From Batillaria attramentaria (lineage: Eukaryota; Mollusca; Gastropoda; Batillariidae), in assembly GCA_018292915.2 (NCBI GenBank), contig JACVVK020000017.1, forward strand, positions 1,263,501 through 1,327,500: a stretch of DNA of 64,000 nucleotides. Direction: 5' to 3'. The notes beneath the pieces are model-generated. The model had not been told where the DNA came from. It made no database searches and saw only the letters and a program-made list of their open reading frames with translations. A program made the position numbers and the translations under genes. Of this stretch, positions 9,401 through 61,356 are shown piece by piece (position 1 is the first letter of the stretch; every line of letters starts with the position of its first letter).

Positions 9401-10789
9401 CAGCGGTACACAGCTGAAGTACAAACGCTGTAAGTGTTTCATCATCAACGCGTCTACTGGCTTCTTTAACAGCCCATCTATGCTGTGTATCACTCACACC
9501 TCGCTTGAGACACTCAGTGACGGTCCTCCACAGGCCCCGTCTGACGGTCACAGTCAACACAGTTTCACGTCCATCGGCAGTACATTGGGAAAGTATGAAT
9601 TGTGTAAGACTTTCATTATCAGCATGGTCACTGGCTTCTTCAACAGCCCATCTATGTTGTGTATCACTCACACTTCGCCACAGGCCCCGACTGACGGCTT
9701 TAGTGGAGACAGTTTCATGTTCATCGGCAGTACACTGGGGAAGTATGAACCATGTAAGACTGGCATCATCAGCATGGTCACTGGCTTCTTTAACAGCCCA
9801 TCTGTGTTGTGTGTCGCTCACTCCTCGCTTGAGACACTCGCCGACAGTCCTCCACAGGCCCCGTCTGACGGCTACAGTCATCACCAATTCACGTTCATCG
9901 GCAGTACATTGGGGAAGTATGAACCATGTAAGACTGACATCATCAGCATGGTCACTGCTTCTTTAACAGCCCATCTGTGTTGTGTGTCACTCACACCTCG
10001 CTTGAGACACTCACCGACAGTCCTCCGCAGGCCCCGTCTGACGGCAACAGTGGACATACTTTCACATTCATATGCAGTACATTGCGGAAGTATAAGCCAT
10101 GCAAGTCTGTCATCATCAGCATGGTCACTGGCTTCTTCAACAGCCCATCTATGTTGTGTATCACTCACACCTCGCTTGAGACACTTACCGACAGTCCTCC
10201 ACATGCCCCGTCTGACGGCTACAGTCATCACCAGTTCACGTTCATCGGCAGTGCATTGGGGAAGTACACACGTTGTAAGTGTGTAATCATTAACGCGTTT
10301 ACTGGCTTTTTCAACAGCCCATCTATGATGTGTATCACTCACACCTCGCCTTAGACACTCAACGACAGTCATCCAGAGGCCCCGTCTGACGGCTTTAGTG
10401 GATACAGTTTCATGTTCATCGGCAGTACACTGGGGAAGTATGAACCATGTAAGACTGACATCATCAGCATGGTCACTGGCTTCTTTAACAGCCCATCTAT
10501 GTTGTGTATCACTCACACCTTGCTTGAGACACTCACCGACAGTTTCCCACGAATCCAATTCCCTATAAGCAGCCACAGCCTGTCTGACGGATCCAGTCAA
10601 CACCAATTCACGTTCATCGGCAGTACAGTGGGGAAGTATAAACCGTGAAAGACTATAACAGTCAGCAAGGTTACTGGCTTTTACAACAGCCCATCTACGT
10701 CGTGTGTCACAAAGCTCATGTGACAGACAGTCACCGACATCCTCCCGCCGACTCTGACAAACAGCATCTTCTAACAATACAGACTCCAT
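6495..10789 (-). pseudogene. Copy A of the ten-repeat/ankyrin/SOCS-box protein gene, disrupted
   Basis: Read on the minus strand from the ATG at 10789, this is a full paralogue of the gene at 32325-36496 and lies in the same orientation. It has ten 58-residue repeats, a helical middle segment, ankyrin repeats (phrases GNTLLHKAG, GKTALHSV, GKTALYYA) and the start of a SOCS box (RRLESICRLVISHHLG). It carries at least four lesions relative to copy B: a one-base deletion at about 9957 (actg-cttc instead of actggcttc); a SINE inserted at 8050-8219; an extra T in a T8 run at 7973-7980; and an extra G in a G6 run near 6512-6517, which shifts the frame into a stop before the Cullin-5 box. Repeat seven also has an in-frame eight-residue deletion. 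A MITE abuts the 3' end. It is probably non-functional. The frame is intact at the site where copy B is shifted (7221-7230). Confidence 0.85.
8050..8219 (+). mobile_element. tRNA-derived SINE inserted in copy A, with 12-bp target-site duplication
   Basis: The head is tRNA-like: an A-box-like region (gtggtcgaatggtagag) and a B-box-like gagttcgatccc. The body is shared with all other copies in the window (ggggccaaatatttgtgctg, tggaaaaggacgttaaac) and it ends in a CCCA-rich tail. The duplicated target TTCATCTGAAGG flanks it at 8038-8049 and 8220-8231. Copy B has the single empty site at 33920-33931. Confidence 0.95.
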
Positions 10790-11045: not shown

Positions 11046-12989
11046 ACAGATGTATATCAAGGAGAGAGCCACAGTTAAGTCGGCCATTCAGTCAGCCAGG
11101 AGACAGTTCTACACGGACAAAATTGACTCTGGTGCATCATCTAAACAGTTGTTCTCTGTGATCGGTGAGCTCCAGGGTAAGCCCCGCACCACTCCCCTTC
11201 CGACCAACGTGCCTCGCGAGGATCTGCCTCAACGGTTCTGTACCTTCTTTTCGGACAAGATCAAGCGTATCCGCTCTGAACTTGACTCGTGTTCGTGTGA
11301 TCCCCCTACATTTAGTGTATATAACGGCCCTTCACTGTCATGTTTTGAGCCAGTGACTGAGCAGGAGGTCCGTGAACTGATTGTGATGTCTCCGACAAAG
11401 AGCTGTGCACTTGATCCGATTCCTACTCCTCTTGTCAAACAGTGTATTGATGAACTCATTTCATTGATCACTTACATTGTAAACGTTTCTCTTGCCACAG
11501 GTACTGTTCCCAGTCAGTTTAAGCACGCTGTTGTGACGCCGCTTCTGAAGAAGCCGGGACTCGATCCGAACGACCTGAAACACTTTAGACCTGTCTCTAA
11601 TCTTCCATTTATTTCTAAGATTCTAGAGAAGGTTGTCCTGAAGCAGTTGCAGCGCCATCTGTTTGAAAATGATTTACTTGAAGTCCACCAGTCAGCATAC
11701 CGGAGGGATCATAGCACGGAGACTGCTGTGCTGAGCGTCCTGGATGGTCTGCTAGTGAAGGCAGACGAGAGATTAGTCTCCCGTGTTGCTCTCCTGGATC
11801 TCAGCGCAGCATTCGACACGCTTGATCACTCTGTGATGCTGAAGAGGCTGGAAGTTACTTTTGGTATTCGCGGTACCGCTCTTGCATGGTTTTGTTCCTA
11901 CGTCAGTGAACGTTCCCAGGCTGTTACCGTTGATGGTAGGTTGTCCGCCCCTAGTCCGCTGTTATACGGGGTCCCTCAGGGCTCCGTGTTAGGACCTGTT
12001 TTGTTTACTTTGTATTCACAGCCTCTGTCTGACGTGATCATCGCCCATGCGTGTGATTTCCATAAATATGCGGATGATACGGAACTGTCAAAAAGTTGTA
12101 CACCTGGCAATTTCAGCTCCGCTCAGCTGAGCATTCAGTCTTGCATAGAGGATGTTTTACGGTGGATGACTAGCAACAAACTGAAACTTAACACTGAGAA
12201 ATCCGAAGTCATGCCTGTAGGCTCTCAGTCTCGTCTCAGTCTGATTGACAGCGAGTTCGTAAACATCGGCGGCTCGTGCGTTACTTTCCAAAACTGTGTG
12301 AGGTATCTAGGTGTAAGGATAGATCGCACGCTTTCCATGCATGATCAGATCAGCAGCGTCTGCCGCGCGGCTTTTCTCGAGCTTCGCAGGATCTCGGCAC
12401 TTAGACCGTACCTCTCAGAAAATTCAGCTTCTAAGCTTGTGAATGCAATGGTCACCTCTAGGCTGGATTACTGCAACTCTGTGTTCGCAGGTCTACCGGC
12501 AGACGAAATCTCACGCTTGCAAATGATACAGAACAACGCGGCGCGTCTCGTCCTTAGGAAACGCAAGAGAGACCACGTCACGCCTCTGTTAAAACAACTC
12601 CACTGGCTTCCCGTGAAATTCCGCTGCCACTTTAAGAGTGCAACCTTTGCATACCGGTTCTTTGAGGGCTCTCTCCCTCCGTATCTGTCTGCCTTGCTGT
12701 GCGCTTACCACCCATCTCGCACACTTTGTTCCGCCGATGAAAAGCCAAGCGCAACATGAAAACCGCAGGCGAACGCTCCTTCAGTTTCCTCGCCCCAAAT
12801 GTTTGGAACTCGCTGCCAGTCGAACTTCGTGACCTTCCCACACTGTCCCAGTTCAAATCGAACCTGCAAACCCATCTCTTTCGTCAGGCCTTTCACACTT
12901 ATGACTAGTCTGCCATTGTTTCAGTGCCTTTGACTGCAATCTGCATCAGGCTGGGTAGTGCATGTCAGTGTGTCAGTGCGTGTGTGTCA

Positions 12990-15199: not shown

Positions 15200-16186
15200 T
15201 ACCTCATATAGCACAGTACAGCACGTTACGCACAGTAGGCTTGAAGCTGATATAGCACAGTACAGTACAGCACGTTACGCACAGTAGGCTTGAAGCTGAT
15301 ATAGCACAGTACAGTACAGCACGTTACGCACAGTAGGCTTGAAGCTGATATAGCACAGTACAGTACAGCACGTTACGCACAGTAGGCTTGAAGCTGATAT
15401 AGCACAGTACAGTACAGCACGTTACGCACAGTAGGCTTGAAGCTGATATAGCACAGTACAGTACAGCACGTTACGCACAGTAGGCTTGAAGCTGATATAG
15501 CACAGTACAGTACAGCACGTTACGCACAGTAGGCTTGAAGCTGATATAGCACAGTACAGTACAGCACGTTACGCACAGTAGGCTTGAAGCTGATATAGCA
15601 CAGTACAGTACAGCACGTTACGCACAGTAGGCTTGAAGCTGATATAGCACAGTACAGTACAGCACGTTACGCACAGTAGGCTTGAAGCTGATATAGCACA
15701 GTACAGTACAGCACGTTACGCACAGTAGGCTTGAAGCTGATATAGCACAGTACAGTACAGCACGTTACGCACAGTAGGCTTGAAGCTGATATAGCACAGT
15801 ACAGTACAGCACGTTACGCACAGTAGGCTTGAAGCTGATATAGCACTAGTACAGTACAGCACGTTACGCACAGTAGGCTTGAAGCTGATATAGCACAGTA
15901 CAGTACAGCACGTTACGCACAGTAGGCTTGAAGCTGATATAGCACAGTACAGTACAGCACGTTACGCACAGTAGGCTTGAAGCTGATATAGCACAGTACA
16001 GTACAGCACGTTACGCACAGTAGGCTTGAAGCTGATATAGCACTAGTACAGTACAGCACGTTACGCACAGTAGGCTTGAAGCTGATATAGCACAGTACAG
16101 TACAGCACGTTACGCACAGTAGGCTTGAAGCTGATATAGCACAGTACAGTACAGCACGTTACGCACAGTAGGCTTGAAGCTGAAGA
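15200..16186. repeat. 49-bp minisatellite, about 20 near-identical copies
   Basis: The unit reads gatatagcacagtacagtac, then agcacgttacgcacagtagg, then cttgaagct (49 bp). The first unit lacks five bases (one CAGTA step). Two units carry an extra T (cactagtac, at 15844 and 16041), spaced by 197 bases. That equals four units plus the extra base, so a four-unit block was duplicated recently. No function is visible. Confidence 0.97.
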
Positions 16187-32324: not shown

Positions 32325-35300
32325 TCAGGACCATTTGCCAAAGATGGGGTCGGTAAGGTCGGTGAATATCACGTAGTTCTTAAATCGGGTCGGCAGGGGG
32401 AGCTTTTTCATTTTCCTCTGACGTATTCTGGGTTTGGACACCCCGAGATGGTGTGAGATCACCAAACGGCAGATCGACTCAAGGCGTCGGGGTGTGGTGG
32501 CGACGCTCCTCAGATACAGCTGCAGGCGTTTTTCGGTCTCAGACCCGAAAGGAAAATAATGCTGGTGCAAGTGGTGTAGCTCTTTCCCTGAACATGCTCC
32601 TGATTCATACAGTACCCTCATGGTCACCTCATCTTCCCTGTCCAAAGCCAGTGCAAATGGCGAATACATCCCGAGGCGCCATTTTCTGTTCAGGAAAAAC
32701 TCTGTGATTTGTGGTTGAAAAGTGCTCACGCCGAGATTGATGCACTCAGCAAGCACTTTTGGGTCAATGCTCGCGCCTCTGACAGCATAGTACAATGCCG
32801 TCTTGCCACAATTACAAACCGCCAGAGGGTTGACTCCCCTGCCAACAACAAAACGGATACTGTCCCACAATGCAGCCTCACACACCGAATGAAGCGCGGT
32901 CTTTCCTTCGTGTTTCCCTCTCAGTCCACCGTCACGCCCCCACAGCAGCGAGCAGCTTATGATATCCGCTTGGTTGTTCTGGATAAGTCTCTCAAGCGGT
33001 GTGACTCCGGAGGGATCTGGCTGATTGATGTCGCCGTGAAACTCCACGAGAAACTTTGTGACATTCCATTTTCTGGCCATAGCGGCCCTGTTCAACACGG
33101 TGTAATTGTTGAGTCCAGCAAGATCTGGTCGGCATCCTGTAAAATCAGTCCCTCCACTGTGTCCCAGTCATTCTGCCTTCCCGCCTTGTGAAGCAGTGTG
33201 TTGCCCTCAGCGTCCCGCTTGTTGATGTCCGCACCGTAACGTTGGCAGTATGTCACCATGTCCCACTGGTGACTGGCCACGGCAGCAGGCAGGGTGACGT
33301 CACGATGACCGATTCCTGTGTCGTCCTTCTCCTCCACCAGCCGCTTGAGTGCCTGCCACATGCCCTGACTGAGTGCCCTTTGGAACAAGTCCTGTCGCTC
33401 CTCTACAAACAGGCGTTCGTCCATACTGCTGATACCGTGGTACACTACACTACCTTCTCCCTCGGACATTGCTTCCTCTATAATCTGACGTCGTTCTGTG
33501 TCATCTACACAGTTCTCCATCACCCTGGCAACCAAGATCCACTGCTTCAATTCGATCAGATATGGAAGAGCGGTTCGACACATGTCAACGTTCACACGTC
33601 GTCCCACGTCCACATAACGTTCCAACAGTTCCCTGGCCACGCCCCACAGCTCACGCTTAACAGCTTCCTGAAAGAGTGAATCCCGTTCTTCTGAGTTTAT
33701 CATCCTCAGGAGTTTTATCACTGTGTACTGAGACCTGTTTTCCATCGCTTTGTTCAGAGTAAGTCCGATAATGTCCGAATCCCTTGTTTTCCTGATACGA
33801 TAAAGCAGTGCATTCCATTTCCTGAACTTAACAGCCATCGTAACGTCCTTAGCAGTTTTGTCTAGGTGACGTTCGAGCTGCATTAGATCAAGTAGCCTCT
33901 GCTTGTACCGTCTGACTTCTTCATCTGAAGGTGTCTTCCTGCTCACATTGGCTGTTTCCAGGTCTTCTCTAACACGTCGCAAATCCCCTCCCATTCCAAC
34001 CATCTCAGTGACTGTGTCCCAGTCCGCGTGTTTGGCCACCTGGCGTTGCACGCGCCTCATCTGATCATCTGTCAATCCGTGATTGGCCAAAACCGCCACC
34101 GCACTCCATTCTCCGGAATAAAAGGCTTCGAACATTGCCCATGAACGCTGGTCATCGTACACTGTGTGGTCTGCCAGCCGCTTCACAAAGGTCCATTCTC
34201 TGTTTTCTACGGCAGCGCGGAAAACAAGTCTCCTGACTTCTTCCCATGCAGTGTTTAGTTTAGTGAGGGCAAAGTTTTGGATGTCACCGTTCACAGGTTG
34301 GGTGGCCAGTAAAGCGATGACTACGGAGTGCACGTGCGGACTACCAAGAGTGTTATCAAGGTGTGCCACAAGAAATAATATGCGTTCAAAAACAGCATAA
34401 TGCAATGGCATATCACAGTTGAACCGTTCAAAGGCGCTTTTTAGTTTGCTCATCCATTGTTTGGAGATTGACTTCAGCTCAGTGCCATTCATACTTCTTG
34501 CTTTCACTGCAGTTTGAATGTGTTTCAAAATGCTCAACACAACTGCTTCCTTGAATTTGACTAGGTTCTGCAAGTCAGCCTCTGTTGGTTTGTTGACCTG
34601 AAGCGTTAGTTTCTTCAGTGATTCACCATACAGACAAGCCCAAAGACGCAGTAATTCTTCAAGGGGCTCATTCCTCCATCTTTCACACACTCTTATATAC
34701 TTGAATATGGCATCTTGCGCTTGATTTGAACATAGCATGTATTTTTCATATACATGTATCTGGTCTTTTGGTATATATGACAATAAAAGACCAACTGCAT
34801 TCTCAGAACAGCTGCTAGCCTCATCAACTGCCCATGCATACTGTTGATCACTGACTCTACGTTGAAACAGGCTACCAGTTACACGCCACAAACCCCGTTT
34901 TACACACTCGTTGAAAACTGACTGATGCTGGTCGTCAGAACAATAGCTAAGAATCCGAATCGTCGTGTCAGAATCATCAGCACGCAAACTGGCTTCTCGG
35001 GCGGCCCACTGGACCATGCCGACACTGACTCCCAGCTTCAAACAAGTTTCGACAGTCTGCCACAGGCCGCGTTTGGTGGCTTCAGTCAACACAGATTCAA
35101 GTTCGTCAGCAGTGCACAGTGGAAGTACAAACGTTATAAGTGTGTCATCATCAGCGCGTTTACTGGCTTCTTCAACAGCCCGTCTATGTTGTGTGTCTGT
35201 CACACCTCGCTTGAGACACTCAGTGGTGGTCTTCCCAAGGCCCTGACTGACGGCCACAGTAAACAAAGTTTCACGTTCATCGGCAGTATATTGGGGAAGT

Positions 35301-36496
35301 ATGAACTGTGAAAGACTATCATCATCAGCATGGTCACTGGCTTCTTCAACGGCCCATCTATGTTGTGTATCACTCACACCTCGCTTGAGACACTCAACGA
35401 CAATCTTCCACAGGCCCCGTCTGATGGCTACATTCATCACCAATTCACGTTCATCGGCAGTACATTGGGGAAGTATGAAGCATGTAAGACTGACATCATC
35501 AGCATGGTCACTGGCTTCTTTAACGGCCCATCTATGTTGTGTGTCGCTCACTCCTCGTTTGAGACACTCGCAGACAGTCCTCCACAGGCCCCGTCTGATG
35601 GCTACATTTATCACAAATTCATGTTCATCGACAGTACATTGGGGAAGTATGAACCATGTAAGCCTGTCATCATCAGCATGGTCACTGGCTTCTTTAACAG
35701 CCCATCTATGTTGTGTATCACTCACTCCTCGCTTGAGACACTCACCAACAGTTTCCCACAGGCCCCGTCTGACGGCTACATTCATCACCAATTCACGTTC
35801 ATCGGCAGTACATTGGGGAAGTATGAAGCATGTAAGACTGACATCATCAGCATGGTCACTGGCTTCTTTAACGGCCCATCTATGTTGTGTGTCGCTCACT
35901 CCTCGCTTGAGACACTCGCAGACAGTCCTCCACAGGCCCCGTCTGATGGCTACATTTATCACAAATTCATGTTCATCGACAGTACATTGGGGAAGTATGA
36001 ACCATGTAAGCCTGTCATCATCAGCATGGTCACTGGCTTCTTTAACAGCCCATCTATGTTGTGTATCACTCACTCCTCGCTTGAGACACTCACCAACAGT
36101 TTCCCACAGGCCCCGTCTGACGGCTACAGTCATCACCAATTCACGTTCATCGGCAGTACACTGGGGAAGTATGAACCATGTAAGACTGACATCATCAGCA
36201 CGGTCACTGGCTTCTTTAACAGCCCATCTATGTTGTGTATCACTCACACCTCGCTTGAGACACTCACCGACAGTCCTCCACAGGCCCCGTCTGACGGCTA
36301 TAGTGAATACAGTTTCACGTTCATCGGCAGTACATTGGGGAAGTATGAACTGTGTAAGACTGACATCACCAGCACGGTCACTGGCTTTTTTAACAGCCCA
36401 TCTACGTTGTGTGTCACTATGCTCAAGCGACAGACAGTCACCGACATCCTTCCACCGACCCTGACAAACAGCATCTTCTAACAATACAGACTCCAT
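32325..36496 (-). CDS. Copy B: ten 58-residue repeats, helical solenoid, ankyrin repeats and SOCS box (one frameshift)
   Basis: The start ATG at 36494-36496 has a good context (A at -3, G at +4). The first 1,130 residues read without interruption to near 33110. There one base is missing relative to copy A (attgt-t-gagtcc against attgtcagagtcc), and the frame continues to the stop at 32325, about 1,390 residues in all. Ten 58-residue repeats (phrases RGLWRTVGECLKRGVSDTQH, RWAVKEAS, ILPQCTADE) fill about residues 7-590. A helical middle with similar A..G.W..V..L spacing reaches about 1060. Four to five ankyrin-type repeats follow (GNTLLHKAG, GVTPLERLI, GKTALHSVC, GKTALYYAV). The C-terminus is a SOCS box: RRLESICRLVISHHLG (Elongin-BC box) and LPLPTRFKNYVIF (Cullin-5 box). 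By analogy with ankyrin-SOCS-box (ASB) proteins it would recruit substrates to a Cul5 ubiquitin ligase. The N-terminal array is unfamiliar to me. The frameshift may be real or a sequencing indel. Confidence 0.82.
34930..36480 (-). repeat. 174-bp coding tandem repeat with 348-bp higher-order duplication
   Basis: DNA of the repeat array in copy B. The 174-bp period equals 58 codons. Units three-four and five-six form nearly identical 348-bp blocks: catgtaagactgacatcatc recurs at 35481 and 35829 with almost no difference between blocks. The outer units are more diverged, as expected for growth from the middle by unequal exchange. Because the period is a multiple of three, long antisense frames also stay open. 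Confidence 0.9.
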
Positions 36497-44340: not shown

Positions 44341-44376
<36 letters not shown>

Positions 44377-44631
44377 GGGAAGTAAGTAAAGCTGAGAGCG
44401 CTCCCTAGATCTAGGAGGTGTGTGCTTTGTATGCCATTGGACAAGTCCGCCTTGCCCTATATTGGCTACAAGCCACAATGGGAGGTGGGGGGGGGGGGGG
44501 GGAACCTACCATCCTACCGCTGAAACGTCTAACAGATCTAAGGGTATCTCACCATTCATAGTGCCCCCATTCCCCTCCCACCGGGAGGAAAATGGTCGGT
44601 ACGACCAAGGCCATATGAATTGGTGATTTTA

Positions 44632-44683
44632 GCCGCTCACGACCATGGTTTCGGGTCAATGGGACCCTCATCAGGTGAGCATG
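44632..44683 (-). ncRNA. Type I hammerhead ribozyme
   Basis: Read on the minus strand: stem I GCTCAC, core CTGATGA, stem II GGGTC-ccatt-GACCC, core GAAA, short stem III CC-at-GG, then TC, then stem I GTGAGC. All conserved core bases and the G10.1-C11.1 pair are present. Predicted self-cleavage is after the GTC complementary to 44641-44643. The very short stem III is typical of metazoan retrozyme hammerheads, which often act as dimers. Confidence 0.88.
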
Positions 44684-45236
44684 CGGCGATACCCACGAGG
44701 GCTGCAGCGTCCAACTAGCACCAAAAGGCTGCCCCAGAATAATCTGGTGCGTCTCCAGTACTAGCAGACGCTGCTACTCTAAAGCTCTGCAAGAGGTTTC
44801 AGCGGAAAAAGACTAAATAATTTAGAATGAGCAACTGCCTAGGTGTAATGTCATGTAATTACATTTAATATAGAATAGGAACAAAGGCGTTACTAAAGCC
44901 GAAAACATGCGCTCAATCAGGTCAATTTGAAAGTAGGGGAAGTAAGTAAAGCTGAGAGCGCTCCCTAGATCTAGGAGGTGTGTGCTTTGTATGCCATTGG
45001 ACAAGTCCGCCTTGCCCTATATTGGCTACAAGCCACAATGGGAGGTGGGGGGGGGGAGACCTACCATCCTACCGCTGAAACGTCTAACAGATCTAAGGGT
45101 ATCTCACCATTCATAGTGCCCCCATTCCCCTCCCACCGGGAGGAAAATGGTCGGTACGACCAAGGCCATATGAATTGGTGATTTTAGCCGCTCACGACCA
45201 TGGTTTCGGGTCAATGGGCCCTCGTGGGTATCGCCG

Positions 45237-45288
45237 CATGCTCACCTGATGAGGGTCCCATTGACCCGAAACCATGGTCGTGAGCGGC
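45237..45288 (+). ncRNA. Type I hammerhead ribozyme (inverted copy)
   Basis: Stem I GCTCAC (45240-45245), CTGATGA (45246-45252), stem II GGGTC/GACCC (45253-45257 and 45263-45267), GAAA (45268-45271), stem III CC/GG (45272-45277), T45278 and C45279, then stem I GTGAGC (45280-45285). Predicted cleavage is after C45279. The sequence is identical to the minus-strand copy. Confidence 0.88.
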
Positions 45289-45599
45289 TAAAATCACCAA
45301 TTCATATGGCCTTGGTCGTACCGACCATTTTCCTCCCGGTGGGAGGGGAATGGGGGCACTATGAATGGTGAGATACCCTTAGATCTGTTAGACGTTTCAG
45401 CGGTAGGATGGTAGGTCTCCCCCCCCCCCACCTCCCATTGTGGCTTGTAGCCAATATAGGGCAAGGCGGACTTGTCCAATGGCATACAAAGCACACACCT
45501 CCTAGATCTAGGGAGCGCTCTCAGCTTTACTTACTTCCCCTACTTTCAAATTGACCTGATTGAGCGCATGTTTTCGGCTTTAGTAACGCCTTTGTTCCT

Positions 45600-45606
<7 letters not shown>

Positions 45607-45656
<50 letters not shown>
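45607..45656. repeat. (TA)n microsatellite
   Basis: This is a perfect AT dinucleotide array next to the inverted arm. A shorter one lies at 44341-44372. Confidence 0.97.
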
Positions 45657-45659: not shown

Positions 45660-46915
45660 AAGGTCCGAGGAAGCCAATGATAATAATAATAATGAAGAGA
45701 CAAAGCCTGTAAATACTCAGCAACCACACCTCTTCAGCCCTGTCCCTAGTCCAAATCGAGACCGTACGTTTTTCACTTACGTCGGACACTTGCTCGGCCA
45801 ATTACAGCATCGGCTCCCAGTTTCCCCCTAAAAAAACACTCTATTTTTCGATTCTTTATTCAGTTCCACTCTCAGAAATCATAGTGATTAGGAGGCACAA
45901 AGCCTGTAAATACTCAGCAGCTACACATCTTCAACCCTGCCCCCCATTCGAAATCGCGACGTTTTTCACTCACGTTCCACACAATTCCTCTGCCTATTAC
46001 ACCATCGGTTCCCGGTTTCCCCCAAAGAAACACTGAAGTTTTTTATTCTTTGTTCACAGTGAGTATTTACAGGGTTTGTTCCTCCTAATCACTATAATTT
46101 CTGCAACTGAAATTGAATAAAGAATCGAAAGTATATAGTGTTTATTAGGAGGGAAACCGGGAGCCGATGGTGTAAGCTGAAGATGCGTACGACGTGAGTG
46201 AAAAACATCGCAGTTTGGAATGGGGGCAGGCTGGAAGAAGTGTGGCTGCTGAATATTTACAGGCAATGTGCCTCCTAATCACTATGATTTTTGAAATTGA
46301 ATAAAGACTCGAAAAATATAGTGTTTATTAGGTGGAAACCGGGAGCCGATGGTGTAATACGCCGAGGAATTGTGTGGAACGTGAGTGAAGAACGTAGCGT
46401 TTTGGAATGGGGGCAGGGTTAAACAGGTGTGGCTGCTGAGTATTTACAGGTTTTGTGCCTCCTAATCACTATGATTTCTGAGACTCAAATTGAATGAATA
46501 ATGGAAAAATATATTGTTTATTAGGGGGAAACCGGGAACCGATGGTGTAATAGGCCGAGGAATTGTGTTGAACGTGAGTGAAAAAGGTCGCGTTTTGCAA
46601 GGGGGGCAGGGTTGAAGAGGTGTGGCTGCTGAGTATTTACAGACTTTGTGCCTCCTAATCACTATGATTTCTGAGAGTGGAATTGAATGAAGAATCGAAA
46701 AATTTAGTGGTTATTAGGGGGAAACCGGGAGCCGATGGTGTAATTGGCCGAGGAAGTGTGTGGAATGTGAGTGAAAAACGTCGCGTTTTGTGCCTCGTAA
46801 TCACTATGATTTCTGAGACTGAAATTGAATAAAAACTCGAAAAATATAGTATTTATTGGGGGGAAACCGGGAACCGATGGTGTAATAGGCCGAGGAAGTG
46901 TGCGACGTGAATAGT
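45660..46915. repeat. ~190-bp satellite array that switches orientation
   Basis: Units contain gtgcctcctaatcactatga and ggaaaccgggagccgatggt. In 46055-46915 they run in the plus direction (unit marks at 46269, 46455, 46648 and, after a shortened unit, 46793). In 45660-46045 the same unit appears reverse-complemented (phrases tcatagtgattaggaggcac and accatcggttcccggtttcc). The switch point is near 46045-46060. Units contain stops in all frames; no gene. Confidence 0.85.
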
Positions 46916-58534: not shown

Positions 58535-61356
58535 ATGTCAAGTGTTCGACGACAAACTCAGTTAAAGATTGGGCACCTTAACGTATATCATTTATCCAAC
58601 AAGGTAAACGACCTTTGTGCTTATCTTAACAACTCTGAACCATTCCACCTGTTTGGTCTAAGTGAGACACGTCTTAACGATTCCATTAGTGACGATGCGA
58701 TACGTATTCAAAATTTTTCTGTTCTTCGTCGCGACCCCGACACCCCCTGGTAAAACGGGCATTGCAGTGTATGTTCACAACTCCATCCAGCACTTAGTCC
58801 GCCGGCGCAAGGACCTTGAAATCCCCAAAGTTGAATGCCTGTGGCTTGAAGTTAGGGACACCAAGACTCGGCCTTTCTTCCTTGGATTTGTCTATCGTAA
58901 CCCTAATTCTACCTTTGAGTGGTACGACGATTTTCTGTCCGCAGTCGAAAATATTGGCTTACCCAATAGTGACGTCCTTCTCTTGGGAGACTTTAATATT
59001 AATCTTCTAAAATCATATCCTGCCTGGGAATGCACTAGCTCACTGGTCGGCCTTCAGCAACTTGTAACAACTCCTACCAGAATAACACCGTCCTCCTCAA
59101 CACTCATTGATCATATCTATACAAATCGCCCCCACTTGGTATCAGATGTCTGTGTTCCCACCTTCAGTATAAGCGACCACTATCCAGTTGTCTGCTCCTG
59201 GCGGTTTAAAATTCCAGCCAAAAATAAGCATGGTCACACGACTATTAACTACAGGTGTTTTAAAACACTTCAATGAGGCTGCGTTCCTCTTTGATCTGTA
59301 TCACACACCCTTCACCGACGTATTCAATGAAAGCGACCCAGAAGCTGCCTTGACACTTTGGTACGAGCTGTATACTTCTGTCCTAAATAAACACGCACCA
59401 CTCCGACAAAAACGGGTTAAACATCATACTATGCCCCCTTGGTTAACTCAGGAAATAGTTCAAGCAATGGCACTCCGGGACGAGCTGCGTGCACAGAAAC
59501 GCTTCAGCGAATTTAAGCAACAGAGAAACCGCGTAAAGACTATGGTCAGGCGGGCTCAGAGAGATCTCTGTGAACAAATGATTAAAAATGACAAAGACAC
59601 AGCATCACTCTGGCGAGCCTTATCAGTCGTTACTAGAGGAAACAATAAACAGTCACCCAATATTCCACCTAATCTCAATGCAAACACCTTTAACAATCAT
59701 TTCCTCTCAGTCGCTGAGTCTCTCGCTAACTCTTGTGGTGATAGTGGTCAGTATACTTGTCCTGATGCCTTGCGGGCATTTTGTGAAACAAAAACAGTGG
59801 GCTCTGAACCATTTGTGATTCCGCCTCTGGCGGTACACGAAGTGGGAAACTTGATCACTTCAATGCGAAGCAAAAAATCATCAGGACCTGATAACATAAG
59901 CCCGAAGTTGCTCAAGCTTTCCCTACCTTACATTGTTGATTCCCTAACTTATATTTATAATCTTTGCATTCACAACCACACTTTCCCATCTGCGTTCAAA
60001 CATGCTAAAGTCATACCATTGCCCAAATCAAAGGATTTAACTGATGTAAACAATTACAGACCAATTTCCCTACTCTCCGCTCTTTCAAAGCCACTTGAGA
60101 GGCATGTGCACAAACATCTCCTTAACTACTTGGAGAGCCGCAGTCTTCTCTATTCACTCCAGTCAGGCTTTCGTCCGCAACATTCCTGCCCCACAGCTCT
60201 GTCACGATTAGTAGACACTTGGTTGTCTTCTGTGAACGAGTCAAAAGTAACAGGTGTGGTATTTTTAGATTTCAAGAAAGCATTTGACCTAGTCAACCAT
60301 AACATTCTGCTGGAAAAATTAAAATGTTATTTGCCGAACTCAGAAACAACGTCTTTTTTCAAATCTTACCTGTCTGATAGGAATCAGAAGGTTCTGTTAA
60401 ATGGTTCTTTTTCTTCCCTTGGTTTGGTGAAACACGGCGTGCCTCAGGGCTCTGTGCTCGGCCCACTTCTGTTTTGTTTATTTATCAATGATTTACCTCT
60501 CCATATAACTCACACCGAAGTCACATGTGACATGTTCGCAGATGATACAACCATCCACACTCCTGACACAGAACTTAACAACATCAGTGCACGACTGCAG
60601 CAGAGTCTGGACGAAGTGTCTGACTGGTGTGATAGTAATCACATGATTCTAAACCCAAATAAAACTGAATCAATGGTCATAACCACACGCCAAAAACATC
60701 AGCTCCGCCCCTTGTCTCTCAGCTTGTCCTTCAGTGACCGCGACATTCAGCAGGTTACCCAACATCGCCTACTAGGGATTACGATAGACAACCAGCTCAA
60801 ATGGCAAAGTCATATAGACAATGTCTGTAAGACTGTCTCTCGTAATCTCTACATGTTGTCCAAACTAAGGTATATGGTCGATGTTGATGCCCGCAAAATG
60901 TTCTATAATGCGCATATAAAGTCTCACTTGGACTACGCATCTACCGTGTGGGATGGTTCAGGGGAAGTCCACACGAAGAGGTTGAATTCCTTACACCGAA
61001 GGGCAGCGAAATTAATCCTTCCTGATCCCCTCTTGTCAACGGACCAAAAACTTAAAAAATTAGAGATGCTACCACTAAAACAGCAGTTTCAGTTTAATAA
61101 AGGTTTAACAATGTACAAGGCTTGGAAGCACACTCTTCCGCCATATCTTTGCTCCTTGTTTTCACAAAAAGAATCCCTTTATTCCAGGTCCCACAATCAG
61201 TTTAAAATCCCCCGCCCCAGGATTGACAAGTACAAATCCAGTCTATCCTTTTCTGGTCCCGATCTTTGGAATTCGCTGCCTCTCCATGTGAGATCATCCC
61301 CTTCACTTTATACCTTTAAGAAGCGGCTTTTTAACTTTTTTCGTTCAGTTCAATAG
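58535..61356 (+). pseudogene. LINE ORF2: AP endonuclease and reverse transcriptase with two 1-base frameshifts
   Basis: Endonuclease motifs: GHLNVYHL, LSETRLN, VYRNPNS, LLGDFNINLL and SDHYPV. RT motifs: DFKKAFDLVNHN, GVPQGSVLGPLLF, and the catalytic FADD (residues 450-453 of the last frame). The C-terminus is SLSFSGPDLWNSLP. The frame shifts once in a C5 run (58743-58747) and once in an A4 run (59262-59265); in each case one base too many explains the shift and the protein otherwise continues smoothly. A start at ATG 58535 gives MSSVRRQ. The element could be recently active, or the shifts could be homopolymer errors. Confidence 0.88.

What the first reader, a model, noticed from the sequence alone, without database searches (positions are those of the whole stretch)
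44632..45288. Two complete type I hammerhead ribozymes in opposite orientation
Both copies show stem I (GCTCAC/GTGAGC), CTGATGA, stem II (GGGTC/GACCC), GAAA, a two-pair stem III and the GTC cleavage triplet. Every required core base is present, and all three stems pair. Short-stem-III type I hammerheads are known from small metazoan retrozymes. Here they are placed so that transcripts from either strand could self-cleave.
Basis: partly seen in the sequence, partly recalled or inferred. Interest (0 to 1): 0.9.

Follow-up and report, generated by a model that had tools for sequence, protein, structure and literature searches.

The report
Self-cutting RNA jumping element, head-to-head
What looks like an animal chromosome carries a recently inserted small non-coding mobile element, a likely retrozyme, whose 555-base unit includes a self-cutting hammerhead RNA motif; it landed in a TA-repeat as two opposed partial copies, which looks like the trace of how such RNA circles are copied back into DNA.

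Summary
The same complete type I hammerhead motif lies at 44634-44681 (-) and 45239-45286 (+). Every core base is present; 0 of 60 simulated windows gave one. Helix III is weaker than stated: one pair plus A-U with a palindromic CAUG tetraloop, like newt/axolotl hammerheads that cleave as dimers.

The two ribozymes are not a designed two-strand device. They belong to one 555-nt, non-coding, strongly self-paired unit, present as 1.5 copies on the minus sense (44375-45218) and 0.7 copy on the plus sense (45218-45608). RNA 5' ends meet head-to-head; both 3' ends abut (TA)n. Each strand has one complete hammerhead, so the locus cannot excise its own monomer in cis; the plus-strand ribozyme is predicted buried in a hairpin.

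Best reading: a young non-autonomous metazoan retrozyme insertion, made by reverse transcription of a circular or multimeric RNA from both strands of a TA-repeat break. Other copies, expression and cleavage could not be tested.

The parts
44343..44373 (.). (AT)15.5 microsatellite abutting the left outer end; presumed target
44375..45218 (-). Left array, ribozyme sense on minus: 844 nt = 1.52 monomers (monomer positions 533-555, 1-555, 1-261); RNA 3' end at 44375
44634..44681 (-). Complete type I hammerhead; predicted cleavage between 44641 (C17) and 44640
44641..45195 (-). Complete 555-nt monomer between two GTC sites; 49.2% GC, longest stop-free run 74 aa (circular)
45196..45218 (-). 3' part of a second minus-sense hammerhead, 5' half lost at the junction
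45216..45221 (.). Head-to-head junction GGGCCC; 1-nt overlap (45218) between the arrays
45218..45608 (+). Right array, ribozyme sense on plus: 391 nt = 0.70 monomer (positions 494-555, 1-328, one C more in the C run); RNA 3' end at about 45608, overlapping the TA run
45239..45286 (+). Complete type I hammerhead; predicted cleavage between 45279 (C17) and 45280
45604..45656 (.). (TA)26.5 microsatellite abutting the right outer end

Best explanation
A recent insertion of a non-autonomous, non-LTR metazoan retrozyme with a 555-nt monomer. Elsewhere in the genome a tandem copy is transcribed; its hammerheads, probably acting as dimers through the palindromic ACCAUGGU helix III, cut the RNA into monomers that a host tRNA ligase closes into circles (inferred from published retrozymes, not shown here). 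At a break in a TA microsatellite both DNA ends primed reverse transcription on such a circle (or on a multimer): one cDNA ran 1.5 times round, the other 0.7 times, and the two cDNA ends were joined with about 1 nt of overlap. That leaves two arrays head-to-head with their RNA 3' ends at the TA flanks. The enzyme is most likely that of a Penelope-like element (PLE), with a LINE as the alternative. Shown: the motif, the unit, the arrangement and the near-identity of copies. Inferred: transcription, cleavage, circle, priming, joining and enzyme.
For: Shown: full hammerhead core twice, none in 60 simulated windows; full-length Hammerhead_1 matches; 555 nt from GTC to GTC, and array limits inside the monomer, not at the ribozyme cut, at both outer ends, as a circular or multimeric template would give; near-identity of copies (right against left array: 0 mismatches and 2 gaps over 358 columns, 1 mismatch and 1 gap over 328; left against itself: 1 mismatch and 2 gaps over 295), so young; longest open run 74 aa; circular fold -196.8 kcal/mol against -162.5 +/- 5.6 in 60 dinucleotide shuffles, lowest -173.1, z -6.2, like the highly self-paired retrozyme circles of PMC7229834; (TA)n at both ends and a TATAT overlap on the right. 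Published: metazoan retrozymes are tandem repeats with type I hammerheads and are proposed to be moved by PLEs or LINEs (PMC7229834); a PLE enzyme cleaves and extends both target strands and prefers AT-rich DNA (PMC11167929, passages); head-to-head is the most frequent inverted arrangement of PLEs, and they favour simple AT-rich targets (PMC3846280, passages).
Against: Only one locus seen: no other copy outside 44375-45608 in the window beyond short chance matches, and the own-genome search did not complete. Rfam score below gathering. Monomer longer than the ~170-400 nt reported for metazoan circles, although the same paper's discussion speaks of lengths from 150 to >1000 nt. The isolated motif's lowest-energy fold is not the active one (-21.3 against -15.3 kcal/mol); the dimer's lowest-energy fold has the active shape, but its energy gain (-5.6) is no better than in controls (258 of 300 shuffles and 60 of 166 loop scrambles at least as large). 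No PLE reverse transcriptase among the 27 distinct ORF stretches scanned (30 entries, 3 of them repeats), and most of the window's smaller ORFs were not scanned; the two RT ORFs found look LINE-like. The published PLE junction palindromes are longer (18 and 38 bp) than the 6 bp here, and that paper itself favours self-priming rather than two-strand priming. No target-site duplication can be read inside a TA repeat. No expression or cleavage data.
Confidence: 0.62

Rival explanations
1. It is the pseudo-LTR of a Penelope-like element, present as a tandem and inverted pLTR remnant without its ORF.
For: PLEs carry type I hammerheads in pLTRs, occur as partial tandems with a head-to-head inverted pLTR, and insert in AT-rich DNA (passages).
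Against: PLE hammerheads are described as minimal, usually lacking helix III or its nucleotides and the loop-loop contacts (PMC7761336, PMC6155905, passages); here helix III has the full 8-nt palindrome. The unit is periodic at 555 nt with nothing between copies, and the longest open run is 74 aa.
Confidence: 0.2
2. The inverted half is an artefact of library making or assembly, and the true locus is a plain tandem.
For: Inverted duplications of near-identical sequence are a known kind of artefact (recalled); no reads could be checked.
Against: The 1-kb flanks outside the TA runs are not mirror images (only four 11-nt matches); the arrays differ in length, end point and C-run length.
Confidence: 0.08
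3. A decayed satellite-type repeat whose hammerhead is no longer active.
For: Rfam score below gathering; inactive lowest-energy fold as monomer.
Against: All core bases and stems intact; copies almost identical.
Confidence: 0.06
4. A bidirectional ribozyme unit under selection, in which transcripts of either strand self-cleave.
For: One intact motif on each strand.
Against: Copies almost identical along their whole length, not just in the ribozymes; no second complete motif on either strand; plus-strand motif predicted buried in a hairpin.
Confidence: 0.04

Closest known systems
Metazoan non-LTR retrozymes (Cervera and de la Pena 2020, PMC7229834, parts 1-4 of 6 read)
   Same: Type I hammerhead in a short non-coding tandem repeat, GC below 50%, highly self-paired unit
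   Different: 555 nt rather than the ~170-400 nt reported for the circles (the discussion also speaks of 150 to >1000 nt); head-to-head inverted arrangement, of which a word search of that paper found no mention ('inverted', 'opposite', 'orientation', 'head-to-head': 0 each)
Newt/axolotl satellite hammerheads (HHR_Amex1 type)
   Same: Helix III of one pair capped by a palindromic tetraloop, suited to dimeric cleavage
   Different: Axolotl units are 330-350 bp; the loop 1-loop 2 contacts reported there could not be verified here
Penelope-like element pLTRs
   Same: Hammerhead, partial tandem plus head-to-head inverted copy, AT-rich target (passages)
   Different: No ORF; hammerhead not of the minimal kind; junction palindrome only 6 bp
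LINE twin priming
   Same: Also gives head-to-head segments with RNA 3' ends outward (recalled)
   Different: Here one segment exceeds a full unit length, which needs a circular or multimeric template

Membership tests
Type I hammerhead ribozyme (RF00163) | Core CUGANGA / GAAA / NUH with three stems, helix I open | tested here: met
   helix III is only A-U plus one C-G in the monomer
Type I hammerhead ribozyme (RF00163) | Rfam gathering score of 34 bits | tested here: not met
   24.7 bits on both copies; 0 hits at gathering
Type I hammerhead ribozyme (RF00163) | Loop 1-loop 2 tertiary contacts | tested here: inconclusive
   A GCAU bulge in an extended stem I and a CCAUU loop II can be drawn, but no test of contact was possible; mussel retrozymes also lack most conserved contact bases
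Type I hammerhead ribozyme (RF00163) | Self-cleavage | not testable with these tools
   needs in vitro transcription
Metazoan non-LTR retrozyme | Type I hammerhead in tandem non-coding repeats | tested here: met
   1.5 head-to-tail copies at 555 nt; longest open run 74 aa
Metazoan non-LTR retrozyme | Unit size ~150-450 bp | tested here: not met
   555 nt; published range; the same paper's discussion allows 150 to >1000 nt for such circles
Metazoan non-LTR retrozyme | Low GC (text: <50%; Figure 1 legend: <45%) | tested here: inconclusive
   49.2%: below 50, not below 45; limits
Metazoan non-LTR retrozyme | Highly self-paired circle | tested here: met
   z -6.2 against 60 dinucleotide shuffles
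Metazoan non-LTR retrozyme | Multiple genomic copies; circular RNA in tissue | not tested
   The genome search not answered in 6 tries; no RNA data available
Penelope-like element | RT with GIY-YIG endonuclease between pLTRs | tested here: not met
   no ORF above 74 aa in the unit; no such domain pair among the 27 distinct ORF stretches of the window that were scanned

The most novel reading that the evidence does not exclude
The locus is a readable footprint of how ribozyme RNA circles re-enter the genome: a Penelope-type enzyme primes on both strands of a TA-rich break, runs more than once round an RNA circle on one side, and the two cDNAs are joined head-to-head. It would tie metazoan retrozymes to PLE machinery through insertion structure, not just through co-occurrence in genomes.
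Probability: 0.3. Interest if true: 0.6.

Novelty: new member of a known kind. Interest (0 to 1): 0.42.

Why it matters
Which reverse transcriptase moves animal retrozymes was open in the 2020 paper, which offers PLEs as a strong candidate from co-occurrence, tandem copies and shared hammerheads. A young insertion with both ends and the internal junction readable gives a testable prediction: other copies should also show TA-rich targets, more than one turn of the circle, and head-to-head junctions. The unit would also extend the size of animal retrozymes, and it shows a newt-like palindromic helix III in what looks like an animal genome (phylum not determined).

Tried and rejected
Rfam over the whole window and over 1.4 kb did not list the motif; only 86-base slices showed it. 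The 22 matches are all below their gathering scores; the best ones lie on the long inverted repeat or the TA runs and were dismissed as hairpin matches. Strict Pol III box A/B patterns in the unit and tRNA genes in the window: none. Coding in the circle: rejected. Dimer energy as evidence for dimeric action: rejected, controls do as well or better. A pattern with this core and helix III in viral and prokaryotic contigs gave 0, as expected for an animal element; both answers warn that records of the window's own genome may be left out. The neighbouring ~190-bp repeats at 45700-46900 were checked for a ribozyme: nothing at gathering in the window; one slice, 46230-46440, gave only 2 sub-threshold hits, neither a ribozyme. 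Not in print: the listings of five word searches (25 of 106, 14 of 14, 20 of 35, 12 of 17 and 15 of 306 papers shown) showed no head-to-head retrozyme array, but they were read by title and abstract start only, and the library lacks most subscription papers (the 2014 PLE hammerhead paper is not held).

Full report
WHAT IS THERE. The window probably comes from an animal genome, judged from Pfam matches to EGF, ankyrin, SOCS box and core-2/I-branching domains, and to VOMI just below its cut-off; the phylum was not determined, because the protein database was off and the genome search did not complete. At 44634-44681 (-) and 45239-45286 (+) lies the same hammerhead: GCTCAC-CTGATGA-GGGTC-CCATT-GACCC-GAAA-CCATGG-TC-GTGAGC. 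The scan found these 2 and no others in the window; 60 Markov simulations of the window gave 0. With helix III left free and shorter stems the window again gave 2, the simulations 0.15 per window and none as strong. Rfam Hammerhead_1 matches both copies over its whole length at 24.7 bits, E 1.7e-4 for 86 bases, below the gathering score 34; at gathering the window has no Rfam hit at all, and at E up to 10 over 1.4 kb no hammerhead is listed.

HELIX III. The realistic monomer form is A-U and one C-G pair with a CAUG tetraloop. ACCAUGGU is a perfect palindrome, so two ribozymes can share an 8-bp helix III. This is the design described for newt and axolotl hammerheads: a single pair capped by a palindromic tetraloop, weak as monomer, efficient as dimer (PMC7229834, parts 1-4 of 6 read and a word search; PMC6155905, passages). 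In ViennaRNA the lowest-energy monomer fold is not the active one (-21.3 against -15.3 kcal/mol), while the lowest-energy dimer has both cores in the active shape with the 8-bp helix III. The energy gain itself proves nothing: 258 of 300 shuffles and 60 of 166 loop scrambles gained at least as much.

THE UNIT. Between the two minus-sense GTC sites (45196 and 44641) lie exactly 555 nt, 49.2% GC, with no open run above 74 aa in circular form. As a circle it folds to -196.8 kcal/mol; 60 dinucleotide shuffles average -162.5 with SD 5.6 and reach -173.1 at best, z -6.2. No similar stretch was found elsewhere in the window beyond short chance matches.

THE ARRANGEMENT. The left array (44375-45218) reads, on the minus strand, monomer positions 533-555, 1-555 and 1-261: 1.52 monomers. 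The right array (45218-45608) reads, on the plus strand, positions 494-555 and 1-328: 0.70 monomer. Their RNA 5' ends meet at GGGCCC with a 1-nt overlap; their RNA 3' ends face outward into (AT)15.5 and (TA)26.5. On the right the monomer's own TATAT overlaps the TA run. Between copies the alignments show at most 1 mismatch plus gaps, mainly the length of one C run, so the insertion is young. The 1-kb flanks share only four 11-nt matches, which argues against a mirrored assembly.

CONSEQUENCES. Each strand has one complete hammerhead only. The second minus-sense copy lacks its 5' half, so this locus cannot release a 555-nt monomer by two cis cuts; circles, if any, must come from other, tandem copies. 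In the predicted fold of the 1234-nt plus transcript most of the ribozyme is paired with the left arm and the junction; in the minus transcript the ribozyme region folds on its own, as in isolation, which is to say in the inactive lowest-energy form. The claim that either strand could self-cleave is therefore weak for the plus strand and untested for both.

MECHANISM. Shown by sequence: tandem copy number above one with outer ends unrelated to the ribozyme cut, head-to-head junction, TA flanks, youth. Inferred: a circular or multimeric RNA template, priming by both DNA ends, end joining of two cDNAs. A PLE enzyme has been shown to cut and extend both strands at AT-rich DNA, starting inside its RNA (PMC11167929, passages), and PLEs show partial tandems, head-to-head inverted copies and AT-rich targets (PMC3846280, passages); the authors of the latter favour self-priming for the inverted copies, with junction palindromes of 18 and 38 bp, longer than the 6 bp here. 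LINE twin priming (recalled) gives the same polarity, and the two RT ORFs found in the window are LINE-like: 59173-61356 with an upstream exo_endo_phos ORF, and 11050-12759. No PLE ORF was found, but only 27 distinct ORF stretches were scanned.

STANDING. As a member, it meets the hammerhead core, tandem, non-coding and fold criteria of animal retrozymes; it fails the published unit size (555 against ~150-450 bp, though the same paper speaks of circles up to >1000 nt) and the Rfam cut-off, and its GC lies between the two limits given; copy number, expression and cleavage are untested. It is best filed as a probable new member of a known kind, with an unusually legible insertion structure.

Noticed in passing
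45700-46900: A second, more diverged repeat array next door: ~190-bp units (about 85% alike) in one orientation to ~46056 and in the opposite orientation after it, also a tandem-plus-inverted layout; no ribozyme found in the slice checked.
   Followed up: partly
58662-61356: LINE-type retrotransposon: exo_endo_phos ORF followed by an RT ORF.
   Followed up: partly
11050-12759: RT ORF resembling LINE-1 ORF2 chains by sequence.
   Followed up: partly
9678-10543 and 35050-36418: 174-bp tandem repeats (period a multiple of 3) inside long ORFs at two places in the window; ORFs there have VOMI-like and ankyrin matches.
   Followed up: no
15213-16183: 49-bp tandem repeat, 19.8 copies, 99% matches.
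   Followed up: no
9884-10789 (-): Weak match to SNAD3, a secreted AID/APOBEC-like deaminase family, just under its cut-off.
   Followed up: no
44487-44502 and the matching places in the other two copies: The unit's C run (ribozyme sense) differs between the three copies (16, 10 and 11 C), with a TT/TCT difference beside it, as slippage during copying might give.
   Followed up: partly
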